From positions 19,903-83,902 of the forward strand of contig JAJFFG010000017.1 in NCBI GenBank assembly GCA_021776825.1: a DNA stretch of 64,000 nucleotides, read 5' to 3'. Made by a program: the position numbers and the translations under genes. The stretch's first letter is position 1. Each line of letters starts with the position of its first letter. Origin of the DNA: Planctomycetota bacterium. Its GTDB lineage: Bacteria > Planctomycetota > JAJSAM01 > JAJVHW01. The notes beneath the pieces were generated by a model. The model did not search any database and was not told where the DNA came from. It saw nothing but the letters and a program-made list of their open reading frames with translations. Below, piece after piece: positions 3,268-63,938 of the stretch.

Positions 3268-4110
3268 CTACCTCCTCTTCTTCTTGCGACCGCGAATGAT
3301 CAGCTTGTTGCTGGCCTTCTTCTTCGGTCGTGTCTTGCCGCCCTTCGACGGCTTGCCCCACGGAGAGCAGGGACCGCGACGGCGCCCAGCGCCCGCGCGG
3401 CCCTCACCGCCGCCCAGCGGGTGGCAGTAGGGGTTCATCGCGGCGCCACGCACCTTGGGACGACGGCCACGATGGCGGTTGCGGCCCGCTTTGCCGATGC
3501 GCACGAGCGCGTGATCCGCATTGCCGACCTGACCGATCGTCGCGCGGCACGTCTCGCGCACAATTCGCATCTCGCCGGACGGCATCACCAGCGTCGCCAT
3601 GCCCGCGTCGCGAGCGGCGAGCTGGATCTGCGTGCCGGCAGACCGGGCCATCTGGCCACCCTTGCCGGGCGTCATCTCCACGTTGTGGACCATGAGGCCG
3701 AGCGGGATGTCCTTGAGCATCTTCGAGTTGCCGACGCGCGGCTCCGCCGTCGGTCCCGACATGACCTGCTGCCCGACCTGGATGCCCTTGGGCGCCAGGA
3801 TGTAGCGCTTCTCGCCATCGGCGTAGTGCAGCAGCGCGATGCGGGAGGAGCGGTTCGGGTCGTACTCGATGGACGCGACCTTGGCCGGGATCCCGTCCTT
3901 GTCGCGCTTCCAGTCGATGATGCGGTAGCGGCGCTTGTGACCACCGCCCCGTCGACGGGAGGTGATGCGACCGTACGAGTTGCGCCCGGCCTTGCGGACC
4001 AGCGGACGCAGCAGCGACTTCTCGGGATCCTTGGTCGTGATCTCCTTGAAGTCGGAGACCGACGAATTCCGGCGGCCCGGCGAGGTCGGCTTGTAGACGC
4101 GAATACCCAT
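3268..4110 (-). CDS. rplB: 50S ribosomal protein L2
   Basis: L2 (280 residues) contains the domain order of the family: N-terminal SPGRRNSSV, the [18 protein letters not shown] block at about 58-75, and the C-terminal motif near residues 220-235. In most bacteria that motif reads NPVDHPHGGGEGR; here it reads [13 protein letters not shown], so the histidine equivalent to E. coli His229 is kept while the flanking Asp and second His are replaced. The C-terminus is basic. L2 is needed for subunit association and for the peptidyl transferase centre. Confidence 0.97.
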
Positions 4111-4134
4111 GGCGGTTCTCCTCGGCTCCTCTCG

Positions 4135-4416
4135 TTAGAAGAGCTCGATCACGTCCTCGTCGCGGAGCGTCACGAAGGCCTTCTTCCACGCCGCCGTCTT
4201 GAAGACGACGCGGCCGCGACGACGCGGCTTGCCGGGCACCTTCGCGGTGTTGACCTTGGTCACTTTGACGTCGAACAAGCGCTCGACCGCATTGCGGATC
4301 TGCACCTTGTTCGCCTTCATGTGGACGGAGAACACGTAGGTGTTCCCACCGTCGAGCAGCGCCATCGTCCGCTCGGTGACGAGCGGCCGCTTGATCACGT
4401 CGTAGATCTGAATCAT
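4135..4416 (-). CDS. rplW: 50S ribosomal protein L23
   Basis: L23 (93 residues) begins MIQIYDVIKRPLVTERTM and shows the conserved ANKVQIRNAVERLFDVKVTKVNT at about residues 34-56. It is the main docking site at the tunnel exit for trigger factor and SRP. Its ATG overlaps the rplD stop (ATGA at 4413-4416). The region 4111-4134 before rplB is an ordinary short spacer. Confidence 0.96.
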   Translation of the reverse strand: MIQIYDVIKRPLVTERTMALLDGGNTYVFSVHMKANKVQIRNAVERLFDVKVTKVNTAKVPGKPRRRGRVVFKTAAWKKAFVTLRDEDVIELF

Positions 4417-5054
4417 GCGGAGATCTCCCCGGCGCCGACTCGAGCGCGCAGCGCGTCGAGCGACTCCTGCGTGACCAGCAGGTTGCGGTGGCGCAGCACC
4501 TCGTGCGCGTTCACGTCCGAAGCCTGCATCACCGTGACGCCCGGCAGGTTGCGCATCGACTTCCAGGCGTTCTCGTTGCGCACGAGCGTGACGACGAGGC
4601 AGCCGCGCTCAGCGCCCACTGCCGCGATCATCTTCGCCGCGGCGCGGGTGCTCGGTGCGTCGAAGTAGATCGCATCGGCGACGATGACCTCGCCGTCGAT
4701 GAACTTGCCGGCGATCGCGGCGCGCGTCGCGACGCGCAGAGCCTTACGCGGAAGGTGGTACGTGTAGTCGCGCGGCCGGGGCCCGTGTGCAATGCCGCCG
4801 CCACGCCAAATCGGCGAGGACTTGCGGCCAGCGCGAGCGCGACCGCCGCCCTTCTGCTTCCAGGGCTTCTTGATGCTCGCCGTGATCTCGGCGCGCGTCT
4901 TGGTCGACGCCGTGCCCGACCGGGCGTTGGCCTGATACATCAGCACGGCCTCGCGCTGCACGCGACGCGGCGAGCGAGTGCCGAACGCGGACGTGTCCAC
5001 GTCCACGCTCCCGACGCTTCCGTCTGCTGAGTTGAAGAGCTTGCAGTCGCCCAT
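4413..5054 (-). CDS. rplD: 50S ribosomal protein L4
   Basis: L4 (213 residues) has the tunnel-loop core WKQKGGGRARAGRKSSPIWRGGG at about residues 65-87, followed by HGPRPRDYTYHLPRKALR. In E. coli L4 also represses its own operon through the S10 leader. Whether it does so here is unknown, but a structured spacer lies just upstream of rplC. It is nine bases downstream of rplC and overlaps rplW by four. Confidence 0.95.
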   Translation of the reverse strand: MGDCKLFNSADGSVGSVDVDTSAFGTRSPRRVQREAVLMYQANARSGTASTKTRAEITASIKKPWKQKGGGRARAGRKSSPIWRGGGIAHGPRPRDYTYHLPRKALRVATRAAIAGKFIDGEVIVADAIYFDAPSTRAAAKMIAAVGAERGCLVVTLVRNENAWKSMRNLPGVTVMQASDVNAHEVLRHRNLLVTQESLDALRARVGAGEISA

Positions 5055-5063
5055 CGATCGCTC

Positions 5064-5720
5064 CTACTCGCCCTTCGGCATCAGCTTGGCCACAGCGTGG
5101 CGGATCACAATGAAGCTGGTGTCACAGCCAGGCACCGGACCAGCGACCAGGATGCGCCCGTTCTCGGCGTCGACCTTGACGATGCGGAGGTTCCGCACCG
5201 TGCGGCGCTTGCCGCCGTGACGACCCGCCATGCGCTTGCCCTTGAACACGCGACCCGGGTAGGTCGAGTGACCCGTCGAGCCGGGCTCTTTGTAGTTCTT
5301 GGAGCCGTGCGACGCGGGGCCGTACGAGAAGTGGTGGCGCTTGCGCACACCCTGGAACCCGTGGCCGCGGCTGGTGCCGACGACGTCGACCCACTGTCCG
5401 TCCTCGAAGACGTCGGCGACGCCGACAGCGGCCCCGAGGTCAACGTCGGTGTCGCCCGAGCAGCGGACCTCGCGAACGAGCTCGCCAGCGGCGGGGAGGC
5501 CGGCCTTGTCGGCCTCGGCCTTCTGCGGCCGCGAGACGCGCGACTCGCGTCGCTCGCCGCACTGCAGGACCACTGCGTCGTACCCGTCTCGCTCGGCCGT
5601 ACGGCGCCCGAGGACGCGGTTCGGCTCGATTGCGAGCACGGTGACGCCGAGCATCGCGCCCGCCTCGTCAAAGACGGACGTCATGCCGGCTTTTCTACCG
5701 ATCAACGCCGTGACAGCCAT
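5064..5720 (-). CDS. rplC: 50S ribosomal protein L3
   Basis: L3 (218 residues) opens MAVTALIGRKAGMTSVFDEAG and contains GTSRGHGFQGVRKRHHF near residues 115-131 and the HSTYPGRVFKGKRMAGRHGG block that reaches toward the peptidyl transferase centre. A purine-rich AGGTGG lies about nine bases before the ATG. Unusually, rplC is separated from rpsJ by 256 bp of structured sequence, so it may have its own translational or transcriptional control. Confidence 0.97.
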   Translation of the reverse strand: MAVTALIGRKAGMTSVFDEAGAMLGVTVLAIEPNRVLGRRTAERDGYDAVVLQCGERRESRVSRPQKAEADKAGLPAAGELVREVRCSGDTDVDLGAAVGVADVFEDGQWVDVVGTSRGHGFQGVRKRHHFSYGPASHGSKNYKEPGSTGHSTYPGRVFKGKRMAGRHGGKRRTVRNLRIVKVDAENGRILVAGPVPGCDTSFIVIRHAVAKLMPKGE

Positions 5721-5743
5721 CGTTCACACCACCTGCTTCGCGG

Positions 5744-5779
5744 GAAGCCAACTGACCCTCGGAAGCCAACCAACCCTCG
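5744..5779 (-). repeat. Tandem 18-bp repeat, two copies, in front of rplC
   Basis: GAAGCCAACTGACCCTCG (5744-5761) is followed directly by GAAGCCAACCAACCCTCG (5762-5779). The copies differ at two adjacent positions. They lie about 24-60 bases upstream of the rplC start and directly below the large hairpin. Confidence 0.9.
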
Positions 5780-5790
5780 AACGAATGCGC

Positions 5791-5817
5791 GGGGAACCTC
5801 GAGAGGCGAGGTTCCCC
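5791..5817 (-). other. Perfect 11-bp hairpin in the rpsJ-rplC spacer
   Basis: GGGGAACCTCG (5791-5801) pairs exactly with CGAGGTTCCCC (5807-5817) around a five-base loop. Four more pairs, one of them G-U, can form outside it (5787-5790 with 5818-5821). No run of T follows on either strand, so it is not a typical intrinsic terminator. It could be a protein binding site or a processing site. Confidence 0.8.
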
Positions 5818-5976
5818 GTGCGTCCGTCCGCTGGACGCTCCCCATGTGGACCCCGGCCATGGCTTCGTTGCCATGCCGACCCAGACCACACCGGACGGGA
5901 CGTATTCGAGCGGGCCAAAGCCCACTCAAGCGGCCCTGCCGGCATCCCGTGCCCGGCAGAGCCCCTTGCGCGTCAC

Positions 5977-59835: not shown

Positions 59836-59865
59836 CTCAGCCCAGTCGCCCTCAGCCCAGTCGCC
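59836..59865. repeat. Exact tandem 15-bp duplication upstream of smc
   Basis: CTCAGCCCAGTCGCC occurs twice without gap at 59836-59850 and 59851-59865, in the 112-bp spacer between the nrdG-like gene and smc. Confidence 0.95.
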
Positions 59866-59884
59866 CTCGTCGCGGTGACTCCGA

Positions 59885-60619
59885 TCACGACGGCACGCTA
59901 CGCGACCGTCCGCGCGCTCCGAAGTCCTGCGCTGGACGTCCGGCGAGGACGCAGCTGTCCACGTACGCGCCCGCCGTTCGCCCCACCTGCTGCAACGCCC
60001 GTCGTCCCGGCGAACCGTCCGGCGCGGGCTCGAGCACGACGCGGCGTGCCCCGGCGAGCATGCGAATCACCGAGACCATCTGCTCCGTCTCGACGACCTG
60101 CGGCAGCCACGGCACGCGGAACTCGTGCTCGCCGGGGGCACGCAGCAGGATCTCGACCGACTCGTAGACCGCGGCGAGCCGCACGCGCGCACCGACCGCC
60201 ACAGCGTACGTCGGGTCCAGCGGCGCGCGGATCGTCATCGCCACGCTCGACACCTCGCCGCTCTCGACCACCGCGCGCAGCGCGTCGGGGTTGGAACCAT
60301 TCGTGTGAAGACGGACGCGGAGTCCGAGCTCCCGAACGACGCGAACGAGATCACGCAGCCCCTCGTGAAGGGTCGGCTCGCCACCGGCGATCACGACGCC
60401 GTCGAGCCAGCGACGGCGGCGATACAGCGTGTCGAGCGCGCTCTCCAGGGGGATCGTGCCACCCTCGAAGACCTGGGGAACGAGATGCGGCACCACGCAC
60501 GCCGGGCACTTGAAGTTGCACCCCTGCAGCTGCAGCACGGCAGCGACGCGCCCCTCCCACGCCGTGAGGGAGACGGACTCCAACCCACGGAGCGGAGGTG
60601 GCGGAGGCGGGCGCCTCAC
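59885..60619 (-). CDS. Radical SAM activase, NrdG-like
   Basis: The GTG at 60617-60619 overlaps the stop of the nrdD-like gene (GTGA). The 244-residue product has LTAWEGRVAAVLQLQGCNFKCPAC, with the CxxxCxxC cluster that binds the 4Fe-4S of radical SAM enzymes, then IAGGEPTLHEGL and LHTNGSNPDAL, VAMTIRAPLD. This is the pattern of NrdG-type glycyl-radical activases. Its expected partner here lacks the glycyl-radical domain, so its true target is unclear. Confidence 0.8.
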   Translation of the reverse strand: MRRPPPPPPLRGLESVSLTAWEGRVAAVLQLQGCNFKCPACVVPHLVPQVFEGGTIPLESALDTLYRRRRWLDGVVIAGGEPTLHEGLRDLVRVVRELGLRVRLHTNGSNPDALRAVVESGEVSSVAMTIRAPLDPTYAVAVGARVRLAAVYESVEILLRAPGEHEFRVPWLPQVVETEQMVSVIRMLAGARRVVLEPAPDGSPGRRALQQVGRTAGAYVDSCVLAGRPAQDFGARGRSRSVPS

Positions 60620-62646
60620 CACGTGACGATCTCCACGGCGCGCGGTGTTCCCGTGCGCAGCAGTTTTCGGAGCAGAGCCACGAGGCCATCTGGACCGCCG
60701 AGGTCCTCGGGCTCGAGGCGGAGACGCAGCGTCGCCGCGGAGAGGCTCGCGTGCAGCGGCTCCTCGCACTCGACGCGGTCGAGCAGGTCGACCGGCGCGG
60801 TCTCGCGCACCGCGACGCCGGGCGTGTAGGCCTCGCGCTCGGGGTACGCGTCGCTGTGGTCGCCCGGCTCCTCCGCGCCATCGACGGCGAACAATCGCGC
60901 AGCCACGTCGGCCGACTCGTCGGCGTCGAGCGTCGTCCGCACGTCGACGGCCAGGCCGGCCTCCTTCACGCGCAGGGAGAGATACGACACGATCCGGCGC
61001 GCCACGCGCAGCACGTCCTCGTCGCCCTCGTGCAGTTCGAACCCCGAGAGGTGGGCAACCGCCTCATTCAGACCGGTGATCCCGACGGACCAGGTGGCGG
61101 CAGAGAGATCGATGAACGGACGCCGCCCGCGACCACCGCGCAGAAGCGGCGCGAGCGTCCCTCCCGGAGCGCCCGCGACCTGCGAGAGCAGCTCGCGGCG
61201 CGCGACGTGTCCGGCCATGGCCGTGTCGACCAGTGCGTCGCAAGCGCGCAAGAACCCCTCGACGTTGCCGCGGCCGACACGTCGAGCCGCCTGCGGCAAG
61301 TTGAGCGTGATCCGACCAGCGCGTACGGCGGACGGGGAGCTCGGCGCGTCGCGTTCGAACTGGAAGCGCACACGCGCGCCGCGCAGGACGGCATCCGCGG
61401 CGAGGCGCAGCACCTCGCGCGACTCGGCATCGCCGAAGGCCGCATCTCCGAGAACGACGGTGGGCACGGCGAGCAGTTCGCGCGCCGGCAGGCCGTCGCG
61501 GCGGGCGTGCGCGCGCAGCAGCGCGGCGGCGAACTCAGTCGCGGCGCCACCGCGCGGAGTGAGGTCGATCTCGGCCGGGTCGTCTCCCGGATCGGCAGCG
61601 GTCTCGAGCAGGAGTTGCCACGCGTCCTCCGCTACCTCGTCGCGCGAGGCGTCCGTGTGCAGAGCCGCGAACGCCTCGGTCATGCCCCGAAGGCGCACGC
61701 CGCATACCACGGCGGCGCCGAGGTGACGCGTGGCGCGACCGAGTGCGGAGGCGAGCCGTCGACCGGAGCGAGCGGCTTCGGCCGGCGCCCGCGGTCCGCT
61801 GCCGGGTGCAACGCCCGAGACGATGTCGTCGGGCCGCAGCGTGGCCGCGTCCAAGGACGTCGGAGAGCCGAGACCGTGGACATGGAGCTCACCATCGAGG
61901 TGCGCTCGGGCGACATCTGCCGGCAGCAGGTCAGAGAGCGCATGGCAGCGGAGGGCGGCAGCCCCGAGCTCGCGGGACGCGACCGCAGGGACCGGCGCCC
62001 CACCCTCGCGACTGCGCCGGTAGACCGCAGCGGCGAGATCCTGACCGGGGATGAGCGCGGCCGCGCGGCGCCGAAGATCGACAGGCGTCGCGCGATCGAG
62101 CAATTCGACCTCGGTGATGGCGTGGACGAGCGACGCGGGTGCGCGCTGAACCGCGGCGTTACGGAGTCGCACCTCGACGTCCGCCGCCACGTCGTCGGCA
62201 ACTTCACGCGGCACTCCGCCGTCCGATGAGAGCGAACGAGCCAGGCGAGCGCGGGAGAACGGAGTGCTGCGCCCGGACGCCGCGTCGTCGATCCGCAGGA
62301 CTCGATTGTCGAAGAGCGTCGGCGCGAACTGCTCGTGCCGTGCGTCACGCGCCTCGCGCAATCGGCGCCGCCGATCGCGATGCAGGATGAACGCCTTCGC
62401 CGCAGCCGCGTGACCCGTGTCGACGAGGACCTTCTCGACCATGTCCTCGATCTGCTCGATCCCGGGGATCTCGTCGAAGAAGGTCTTCTCGAGGAACAGC
62501 TCCACCACCGCCGCGATCTCGTCAGCCAGACGGCGGTCGTCGCTGCCCGCGGCGAGCAATGCGCCGAGGATGGCATCGCGCACGCGATGCTGCTCGAATG
62601 GCACGGTCTCGCCGTCGCGAAGTCGAACGAGGGCGACGCGTCTCAC
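60616..62646 (-). CDS. NrdD-like protein without catalytic cysteine motif or glycyl-radical domain
   Basis: This 676-residue protein has an ATP-cone (about 1-95), a second ATP-cone-like stretch (about 110-185), and barrel motifs of class III ribonucleotide reductase: ADVARAHLDGELHVHGL, GRITLNLPQAARRV and WSVGITGLNEAVAHLSGFEL. Where active NrdD has cysteines before TINLPR, the sequence is RDAPSSPSAVRAG. It ends AVEIVTW, where relatives go on to a zinc CxxC and the radical Gly. The GTG start overlaps the nrdR stop. Possibly a regulatory pseudoenzyme; that is inference. Confidence 0.75.
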   Translation of the reverse strand: MRRVALVRLRDGETVPFEQHRVRDAILGALLAAGSDDRRLADEIAAVVELFLEKTFFDEIPGIEQIEDMVEKVLVDTGHAAAAKAFILHRDRRRRLREARDARHEQFAPTLFDNRVLRIDDAASGRSTPFSRARLARSLSSDGGVPREVADDVAADVEVRLRNAAVQRAPASLVHAITEVELLDRATPVDLRRRAAALIPGQDLAAAVYRRSREGGAPVPAVASRELGAAALRCHALSDLLPADVARAHLDGELHVHGLGSPTSLDAATLRPDDIVSGVAPGSGPRAPAEAARSGRRLASALGRATRHLGAAVVCGVRLRGMTEAFAALHTDASRDEVAEDAWQLLLETAADPGDDPAEIDLTPRGGAATEFAAALLRAHARRDGLPARELLAVPTVVLGDAAFGDAESREVLRLAADAVLRGARVRFQFERDAPSSPSAVRAGRITLNLPQAARRVGRGNVEGFLRACDALVDTAMAGHVARRELLSQVAGAPGGTLAPLLRGGRGRRPFIDLSAATWSVGITGLNEAVAHLSGFELHEGDEDVLRVARRIVSYLSLRVKEAGLAVDVRTTLDADESADVAARLFAVDGAEEPGDHSDAYPEREAYTPGVAVRETAPVDLLDRVECEEPLHASLSAATLRLRLEPEDLGGPDGLVALLRKLLRTGTPRAVEIVTW

Positions 62647-63143
62647 GAGGCGGGCTTGCCCTTCGACGACTTCCGTGGGCGACGTGAGCGAGACGGTTTG
62701 GCGACCTCCTGGGCGATGTCCTGGAACTCGGAGGCGGACTCGAAGCTCTTGTAGACCGACGCGAAGCGCACGTACGCGACCTTGTCGAGTCCCTTCAGCT
62801 GCTCCATGACCATCTCGCCGATCTGCTCGGTCTCGATTTCCCGTTCGGTCGTCTCAAGGCTCTGCTCCTCGACATGCTGCGCAATCGTCTCGAGATCCTC
62901 CATCGACACGGGTCGCTTCTGACACGCCGTCAGGAGCCCCATCAGGATCTTGCGCCGTTCGAAGTCCTCACGCGTGCCGTCGCGCTTGATCACACGCAGC
63001 GGCGTCTCCTCGATGCGCTCGCGCGTCGTGTAGCGCCGATCGCACGCCTCGCACTCGCGGCGACGGCGAATGACGAAGCCATCCGCGCTCTCGCGCGAGT
63101 CGATGACCTTGTCCTGGTTCTGCTTGCAGAAGGGGCAGCGCAT
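62643..63143 (-). CDS. nrdR: Transcriptional repressor NrdR
   Basis: NrdR (166 residues) represses ribonucleotide reductase genes in response to bound ATP/dATP. The zinc ribbon uses Cys3, Cys6 and the CEAC pair (about 34-37); the ATP-cone follows from about residue 50 (VIKRDGTREDFERRKILMGLLTACQKRPV). The last 25 residues form a basic tail. I chose the ATG at 63143, just after GGGAGCT. It overlaps the nrdD-like gene by four bases. Three palindromes lie 55-96 bases upstream. Confidence 0.95.
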   Translation of the reverse strand: MRCPFCKQNQDKVIDSRESADGFVIRRRRECEACDRRYTTRERIEETPLRVIKRDGTREDFERRKILMGLLTACQKRPVSMEDLETIAQHVEEQSLETTEREIETEQIGEMVMEQLKGLDKVAYVRFASVYKSFESASEFQDIAQEVAKPSRSRRPRKSSKGKPAS

Positions 63144-63197
63144 GTGGAGCTCCCGGCAACGCGGCGCACACAAGCCGCGAACGCCGCCCTCCCAATC

Positions 63198-63246
63198 GTC
63201 AGTTGACCCGATTGTCAGTTGACCCAAGTGTCAGATGACGCAGTGG
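63198..63246. repeat. Three 16-bp direct repeats each containing GTCA-NN-TGAC
   Basis: GTCAGTTGAC (63198-63207), GTCAGTTGAC (63214-63223) and GTCAGATGAC (63230-63239) repeat every 16 bp, and the bases between them are partly conserved. Each is a palindrome with two central bases. They lie upstream of nrdR, as an operator or iteron would. Confidence 0.8.
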
Positions 63247-63478
63247 TCAGGAAACCGCTGCAGACCCGCCTCGACCGCAGGATGTTGCGTCTCATCGAAG
63301 TCTAGACCGCAACCTGTTGTGCGGCAAGGCACGTCCGCATCCGATCAACGTACACGCGGAGCCTGCGCCGGGCTCTCGCGAGCCTGGATCACGTGCTCCG
63401 CGACCGTCGAGAGGGGGGATGCCGGTCCTCGCTCTGACGCGGGGGAATCTAGTCCTTGGGTCCGACAGGCACGGGTGC

Positions 63479-63802
63479 GTCACGGCGCTTGCGCTGGCGC
63501 GCAACCGCCGCGCCGCGCCCTTGCCTGTTGTGGCAGGTCGGCTCCGCGGGTGCGAGGGCTTTCACGCGAGGGCCATCGGAATCGGCCGCACCCTTGCGTG
63601 GCCTCGTTGTGGGGTCACGTCGATTGCTGGCGGTTGTTTGGTGACGCGCATCGGGGTATGCGGCAATCGCCGCGCCTCCCGTGTCTCTGGTCGGCTCCGC
63701 GGCTGCGTCGGCTCGCGCGCGAGCGCCACCCCCTCGGTCGCAGCCTTGCGTGGCCTCATTCCCCGCGTCACGGCGCTCGCGCTGCCGCGCAACCGCCGCG
63801 CC
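63479..63802. repeat. Degenerate direct repeats of about 125-160 bp
   Basis: A 36-bp block recurs at 63479-63514, 63641-63676 and 63767-63802; the first and third differ at only two positions. Two further blocks, GGTCGGCTCCGCGG (63536, 63689) and CCTTGCGTGGCCTC (63592, 63744), keep the same order in units one and two. Confidence 0.85.
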
Positions 63803-63938
63803 CCGGGTGGGGATTCGGACCGCCCTCGTCCCCGCCAACCTGACGCGATCGCTACAGCACCGTACGCGTCCGATCCAGCCATCTGGCGCCCCCGCGTGAC
63901 GGCCTGAGACTGCCCCTTCACCACAGGGAGGGACAGCG

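What the first reader, a model, noticed from the sequence alone, without database searches (positions are those of the whole stretch)
59885..63143. nrdR / NrdD-like / NrdG-like operon in which the NrdD homologue lacks its catalytic parts
Three genes overlap by four bases each. The NrdD-like protein keeps ATP-cones and barrel motifs (HVHGL, GRITLNLPQ, SVGITGLNEA) but has no cysteines before the TLNLP motif and ends where the zinc site and glycyl radical should follow. The radical SAM protein next to it is intact in its CxxxCxxC site. Either the complex has a new role (nucleotide sensing, regulation) or the activase serves another target. No remnant of the missing domain lies in any frame downstream, since the activase begins at once.
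Basis: partly seen in the sequence, partly recalled or inferred. Interest (0 to 1): 0.72.

Follow-up and report, generated by a model that had tools for sequence, protein, structure and literature searches.

The report
Dead anaerobic ribonucleotide reductase, likely repurposed
Some uncultured planctomycete bacteria keep, in one predicted operon with the DNA-building-block repressor NrdR, an anaerobic ribonucleotide reductase that has lost its catalytic cysteines and radical-carrying end, plus an altered relative of its activator protein; the dead enzyme likely now senses nucleotides instead of making them.

The parts
62643..63143 (-). nrdR, 166 aa, Zn-ribbon plus ATP-cone repressor
   Evidence: TIGR00244 188.3 bits against cut-off 124.65
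60616..62646 (-). NrdD-like pseudoenzyme, 676 aa from the GTG start
   Evidence: ATP-cone and NRDD hits; NrdD equivalog TIGR02487 only 62.9 bits against cut-off 326.35; catalytic columns lost
62365..62628 (-). ATP-cone of the NrdD-like protein (residues 8-95 of P0001)
   Evidence: PF03477 68.8 bits, cut-off 25.8
60622..61983 (-). class III reductase barrel (residues 223-676 of P0001), ends before the glycyl-radical domain would start
59885..60622 (-). NrdG2-type radical SAM protein with altered activase site, 245 aa
60497..60520 (-). CxxxCxxC iron-sulfur motif (C35, C39, C42) with Ala in place of the usual aromatic before the last Cys
63276..63321 (-). predicted NrdR-box pair: two 14-bp palindromes, 32 bp start to start
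   Evidence: score 19 of 20, 0 of 300 shuffles; only site with at most 1 mismatch in the 6.88-Mb genome; consensus written after seeing the site
63299..63327 (-). predicted sigma70-like promoter TTGCCG-N17-TAGACT overlapped by the box pair
   Evidence: read by eye from the upstream sequences printed; counterpart TTGnnn-N17-TAGACT in L004 and L005

Best explanation
This operon encodes the repressor NrdR, a class III reductase large subunit (NrdD) that has lost its glycyl-radical domain and 14 of 17 checked catalytic, substrate-site and zinc positions, and a NrdG-type radical SAM protein with an altered activase site; the dead NrdD likely works as an ATP/dATP-binding regulatory protein of dNTP supply. 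Shown here: the losses in all 33 family members compared, a predicted fold and a sequence-level ATP-cone that are kept, positions fixed anew, a class II reductase elsewhere in the genome, no glycyl-radical partner found, and a motif like an NrdR-box pair at the promoter. Inferred and untested: (1) the ATP-cone still binds ATP and dATP; (2) nucleotide state changes how the protein pairs with itself or with a partner (NrdR, or the class II reductase, which has no ATP-cone); (3) NrdR represses the operon when dATP is high, closing a feedback loop; (4) the NrdG-like protein binds the dead NrdD as an Fe-S/SAM-binding accessory and no longer makes a glycyl radical there, because no glycine is left to take it.
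For: Loss is clade-wide: of 33 (window plus 32 relatives), 0 keep either Asn of NxN, the aligned finger-loop Cys pair, the four Zn Cys, Gly711 or Tyr712; D160 is G in 33; 2 keep C171 and 1 keeps E581; of the 120 best-listed intact-type NrdDs 114-120 keep each of these. The window keeps both His of HxHD and N435. Against decay: 50 positions at least 90% fixed in both groups but to different residues; one clade, SH-aLRT 100, 15 members sampled. Constraint: mean identity cone 68.2, N-terminal barrel 54.7 in 13 clade members, 70.3 and 82.1 in nine intact enzymes. Fold predicted kept. Host reductase: NrdJ above three NCBIfam cut-offs, no ATP-cone. No PF01228, one NRDD hit. nrdR with dead NrdD and no NrdG2 hit at E 1e-20 in G006, G007, G008. 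NrdG-like: D129 position Asp in 0 of 77 against 36 of 36 comparison proteins, K131 to R in 74 of 77 against K in 36 of 36, aromatic in 0 of 73 against 34 of 36. Box pair.
Against: No direct evidence of nucleotide binding or of any partner. The NrdG-like protein is more conserved than the NrdD-like protein (mean 68.6 against 58.3%; higher in 76 of 78 comparisons), so it may be the part doing chemistry. The L006 copy is broken by a frame change (segments in two frames; its contig has coverage 3.6 by its title, so error or decay cannot be told apart). The relatives come from a database of predicted proteins, which would tend to miss broken copies. Adjacency to nrdR may be inherited: the intact operon of L007 has the same order. 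No box pair was found before nrdJ. In four hydrogenedentotal genomes a dead NrdD co-occurs with another NrdD (three full-length with a cone, one cut by its contig end) and no nrdR lies in the held locus, so supplying a missing ATP-cone is not a general rule. Most class II reductases lack cones anyway (PMC9669993, passage seen).
Confidence: 0.5

Rival explanations
1. The NrdG-like protein is the working enzyme: it still cleaves SAM and, with the dead NrdD as a nucleotide- or substrate-presenting scaffold, performs a different radical reaction, either on the NrdD-like protein or on a bound nucleotide.
Against: The positions that match PFL-AE D129, K131 and Y35 are replaced throughout; no NrdG2 hit in three genomes that keep nrdR and a dead NrdD; no candidate substrate.
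Confidence: 0.25
2. The dead NrdD is a slowly decaying relic of an anaerobic reductase made redundant by class II NrdJ, carried along in the nrdR operon.
For: The catalytic features are lost; a working-type reductase exists elsewhere; distant members (L009, L010, P0037, P0038) are still more eroded; the L006 copy is frame-broken.
Against: Full-length proteins in 32 relatives (predicted-protein database), open frames at DNA level in the window, L004 and L005, 50 newly fixed positions, a conserved cone and a conserved partner.
Confidence: 0.14
3. A working class III reductase split in two: the glycyl-radical domain is encoded elsewhere and complements the barrel.
For: A CxxxCxxC activase-type protein is retained.
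Against: No such domain found in the host genome; finger-loop Cys pair, NxN flap and E581 are lost as well, which a split would not explain. The genome is 93.6% complete, so a small gene could be missing.
Confidence: 0.02

Closest known systems
Planctomycete-type class III NrdD with extra cone-like domain (for example P0150, P0217 from Brocadia, L007)
   Same: Same domain order (ATP-cone, second cone-like domain, barrel), and in L007 the operon order nrdR-nrdD-nrdG with SMC downstream; separate, well supported neighbouring clade in the tree
   Different: Intact enzymes keep NxN, HxHD, the cysteines, Zn site and Gly; 791-840 aa among the 120 listed against 677-761 aa here
Prevotella copri NrdD (PMC11226230; PDB 8p23 series)
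   Same: ATP-cone and barrel; model superposes at 2.6 A over 429 residues
   Different: PcNrdD uses C171, C416, E581, NxN 114-116 and Gly711 (passages, section 10 read); none of these is kept in the window protein
NrdG2 activase (TIGR02495) and PFL activating enzyme (3cb8)
   Different: Positions of PFL-AE D129, K131, Y35 replaced; added C-terminal motif
Aminoacyl radical enzymes (PMC11528403, passages seen)
   Same: Glycyl-radical enzyme homologues without the catalytic Gly, encoded near an activase
   Different: Those have Ala, Ser or Thr in place of Gly and keep the catalytic Cys; here the whole domain and the Cys pair are gone
Herpesvirus reductase large subunits with a second job (inactive R1 proteins are recalled; that Epstein-Barr R1, which lacks a cone, regulates another enzyme is in a passage of PMC9669993)
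   Same: A reductase large subunit doing something other than reduction
   Different: Viral, class I, no activase, no ATP-cone

Membership tests
Class III ribonucleotide reductase NrdD | C-terminal glycyl-radical domain with Zn site and RxxGY | tested here: not met
   Absent in 33 of 33; Zn Cys in 120 of 120, Gly in 116 of 120 intact-type relatives
Class III ribonucleotide reductase NrdD | Thiyl cysteine at the finger-loop tip and beta-1 cysteine | tested here: not met
   Both absent in the window protein; aligned pair absent in 33 of 33; a single nearby Cys (TSACR, TSICR) in P0024 and P0025 may match under another alignment; beta-1 Cys kept in 2 of 33
Class III ribonucleotide reductase NrdD | NrdD equivalog score (TIGR02487 cut-off 326.35 bits) | tested here: not met
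   Window 62.9 bits; P0005 76.0; L007 403.2
Class III ribonucleotide reductase NrdD | Barrel of the class III type | tested here: met
ATP-cone proteins | PF03477 above its cut-off | tested here: met
   68.8 bits, cut-off 25.8
ATP-cone proteins | Binding of ATP and dATP | not testable with these tools
   Needs protein
NrdG2 activase | TIGR02495 above 131.15 bits and CxxxCxxC | tested here: met
   145 bits, not far above; relatives P0102 (102.3) and P0113 (117.7) fall below
NrdG2 activase | Activase-type Asp and Lys at PFL-AE D129 and K131 | tested here: not met
   T130 and R132 in the window; Asp in 0 of 77 of the clade against 36 of 36 comparison proteins; numbering from the 3c8f alignment with L007; the role of these residues is recalled
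NrdG2 activase | A glycyl-radical target in the genome | tested here: not met
   No PF01228, one NRDD hit only (the dead one), no separate domain found in a 93.6% complete genome
NrdR regulon | Two NrdR boxes about three helical turns apart at the promoter | tested here: inconclusive
   Pair at 32 bp, 19 of 20; the consensus used was written after seeing this site and from recall

The most novel reading that the evidence does not exclude
An anaerobic reductase has become a trans-acting dATP sensor: the dead NrdD reads ATP/dATP with its cone and passes the signal, in a complex with the Fe-S protein derived from its old activase, to NrdR or to the cone-less class II reductase, giving the cell an overall-activity switch that its own reductase lacks. 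In 7 of 7 genomes outside Hydrogenedentota with a dead NrdD (G000-G003, G006-G008; the last two nearly alike) no ATP-cone hit (E at most 0.01) lies on the contigs of the PF02867 reductase.
Probability: 0.22. Interest if true: 0.85.

Novelty: new variant of a known kind. Interest (0 to 1): 0.6.

Why it matters
How ATP-cones and NrdR control reductases is an active topic; a bacterial lineage that keeps a dead reductase with its cone would show that the regulatory half of the enzyme can outlive the catalytic half and could act in trans. The clade also couples loss of a radical target with changes in its activase, a natural experiment on what an activase needs. Source names call some of these proteins ribonucleoside-triphosphate reductase or pyruvate formate lyase activating enzyme, which could mislead claims of anaerobic DNA synthesis.

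Tried and rejected
Assembly or frameshift error as the cause of the short window protein: rejected, because relatives from other assemblies end at the same place with the same losses. Separate glycyl domain: no support (best hit E 0.012, 32% over 37 residues in a 358-aa frame, not followed). Other glycyl-radical target for the activase: no PF01228 hit in G000-G003; among the 12 further genomes hits occurred only in G004, G009, G011. Classic AT-rich NrdR box ACACWATATWNWGTGT (recalled): no hit in the window at 2 mismatches or fewer nor in its nrdR upstream at 4 or fewer; one 4-mismatch hit in L005. Box pair before nrdJ: best 14 of 20 in L002 1-1500, about chance. Genome scan with up to 3 mismatches: two hits per strand, and the reversed control pattern gave four per strand, so the second site (C36, 3 mismatches) is not counted. 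PDB sequence search with the NrdD-like protein found only two ATP-cone chains. Single origin of all dead NrdDs (Planctomycetota and Hydrogenedentota): SH-aLRT 87, open, long branches; undecided. dN/dS was not measured. In one search the row L025 came from a wrong reading frame and is disregarded; one search failed and was redone. In one search W677 was listed as shared with intact enzymes; I take that for an alignment artefact and do not use it.

Literature: four searches were aimed at such a family (one search listed 15 of 50 papers, the other three all their hits) and listed none; four more concerned activases, NrdR and planctomycete reductases. Beyond listings I saw passages of PMC11226230 (and all of its section 10), PMC9531940, PMC11528403, PMC9326890, PMC7077986, PMC9110341, PMC12051234 and PMC9669993; no paper was read whole.
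Full report
WHAT IS THERE. On the minus strand, 63143 to 59885, three genes follow one another with overlaps of a few bases: nrdR (166 aa; TIGR00244 188.3 bits), a NrdD homologue (676 aa) and a NrdG2-type radical SAM protein (245 aa; TIGR02495 145 bits, cut-off 131.15). An SMC gene follows. The window is contig C42:19903-83902 of a 6.88-Mb genome, 93.6% complete. The closest named relatives are planctomycete MAGs (L004, L005), so the host is most likely a planctomycete; its own name is not given.

THE NrdD HOMOLOGUE BELONGS TO A CLADE OF DEAD ENZYMES. A protein search gave 36 hits: the window's own (P0003), 32 relatives at 40-64% identity (P0004-P0035), one intact NrdD (P0036) and two distant proteins that also lack the features (P0037, P0038). 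I compared the window protein plus the 32 relatives (33) with 120 intact-type NrdDs: P0036 and P0150-P0268, the 120 best of 4935 hits listed. Several of these are named as planctomycetes, one as an alphaproteobacterium, most have no name. Positions follow P. copri NrdD (PMC11226230) by way of the alignment of L007 with 8p23. N114 and N116 of the flap: 0 of 33 against 120 of 120. D160 of HxHD: G in 33 of 33, D in 120 of 120. C171: 2 of 33 against 120. Finger-loop Cys pair: 0 of 33 in the alignment against 120. E581: 1 of 33 against 120. Four Zn cysteines, Gly711 and Tyr712: 0 of 33 against 120, 116 and 114. N435 is kept by 33 and 119, H159 by 33 and 120, H157 by 21 and 120. The window keeps H157, H159 and N435 of the 17 checked. 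Two relatives (P0024, P0025) carry one Cys in the finger stretch that another alignment could match to the pair. 30 of 33 have a Cys 6-8 residues before N435; in the alignment it falls on a different Cys of intact enzymes, and the window, P0027 and P0032 lack it.

CHANGE OR DECAY. 50 positions are at least 90% fixed in both groups but to different residues, several towards Arg or Gly. At the DNA level the window, L004 and L005 are open over the whole length. Against this, the L006 copy lies in two frames (tblastn segments 3546-4097 and 4115-5827); the contig title gives coverage 3.6, so error and decay cannot be told apart, and a database of predicted proteins tends to hide broken copies. Relative to intact enzymes, constraint left the N-terminal barrel half and stayed on the cone. 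In a tree of 37 rows the 15 sampled clade members form one group with SH-aLRT 100, and ten intact planctomycete-type enzymes another with 99; whether all dead forms share one origin is open at 87 (quick method; the row L025 is a wrong frame).

GENOME CONTEXT. The host has a class II NrdJ (1854 bits to PRK07562, cut-off 1737; TIGR02504 559 bits; no ATP-cone), no PF01228 hit, one NRDD hit and no convincing separate NrdD C-terminal domain. Its ATP-cones lie in NrdR, the dead NrdD and a two-cone kinase related to 2-phosphoglycerate kinase. Of 12 further genomes: G001-G003 (dead NrdD with NrdG-like) have a PF02867 reductase, no PF01228 and no intact NrdD; G004 (L007) has an intact NrdD and eight PF01228 hits; G006-G008 have nrdR, a dead NrdD (in G008 only a part, cut by the contig end), a PF02867 reductase and no NrdG2 hit at E 1e-20; the Hydrogenedentota G005, G010, G011, G012 have a dead NrdD (in G011 a fragment not scored) plus another NrdD beside NrdG (in G010 cut by the contig end); G009 has a dead NrdD beside nrdR and no other reductase found. 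So 11 of the 12 have another reductase gene. In L009 SMC starts right at the end of the dead nrdD; in L010 another gene lies between. L010 and L011 are very similar and not independent. Completeness of these 12 was not shown.

PROMOTER. Upstream of nrdR two 14-bp palindromes, 32 bp start to start, overlap TTGCCG-N17-TAGACT (63276-63327). The pair scores 19 of 20 (0 of 300 composition shuffles); L004 18 (0 of 300) and L005 15 (6 of 300) at the same distance. L007 also reaches 15 at 31 bp (not shuffled), and L006, L009, L010, L012 reach 12-14; the shuffle mean is about 12.5. Published NrdR sites mostly have two boxes with 15-16 bp between them, three turns centre to centre (PMC12051234, passages); box length and consensus are recalled, and my consensus was written after seeing the site, so its genome-wide uniqueness is only partly independent.

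HOW IT LIKELY WORKS. I favour a (d)ATP-binding regulatory protein made from a reductase. Shown: the losses, the conserved cone, the gene order, the other reductase. Inferred: nucleotide binding, a partner, the feedback. The strongest argument that the NrdD-like protein matters by itself is that dead forms persist with nrdR where no nrdG is found. The strongest counter-argument is the tight conservation of the NrdG-like protein where it is present, which keeps a new radical reaction alive as the main rival.

NOVELTY. Reductase pseudoenzymes are known in viruses (recalled) and glycyl-radical enzyme homologues without Gly are known (PMC11528403, passages), but four aimed searches of the library listed no bacterial NrdD family without its radical domain; subscription journals are largely not held.

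Noticed in passing
window 63191-63238: Three near-tandem 16-mers (CCCAATCGTCAGTTGA type, 81-100% alike) between the predicted promoter and nrdR; function unknown.
   Followed up: partly
window 63477-63809: GC-rich direct repeats (47, 41 and 27 nt, 79-93% alike) in the stretch upstream of nrdR.
   Followed up: no
window 59836-59868: Perfect 15-bp tandem repeat CTCAGCCCAGTCGCC, 2.2 copies, between the nrdG-like gene and SMC.
   Followed up: no
L008, L012, L013, L015 (genomes G005, G009, G010, G012): Hydrogenedentota carry their own catalytically dead NrdD-like proteins; in L012 it lies next to nrdR, and G005, G010 and G012 also have another NrdD with the C-terminal part.
   Followed up: partly
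L006 3546-5983: The NrdD-like gene of this relative is split over two frames near 4100; sequencing error or real break not decided.
   Followed up: no
L041 838-2178 (host contig C22): A 446-aa protein with two ATP-cones fused to a kinase domain related to 2-phosphoglycerate kinase.
   Followed up: partly
L007 12420-13451: In the intact operon a second radical SAM-type gene lies between nrdG and SMC; there is no room for it in the window.
   Followed up: no
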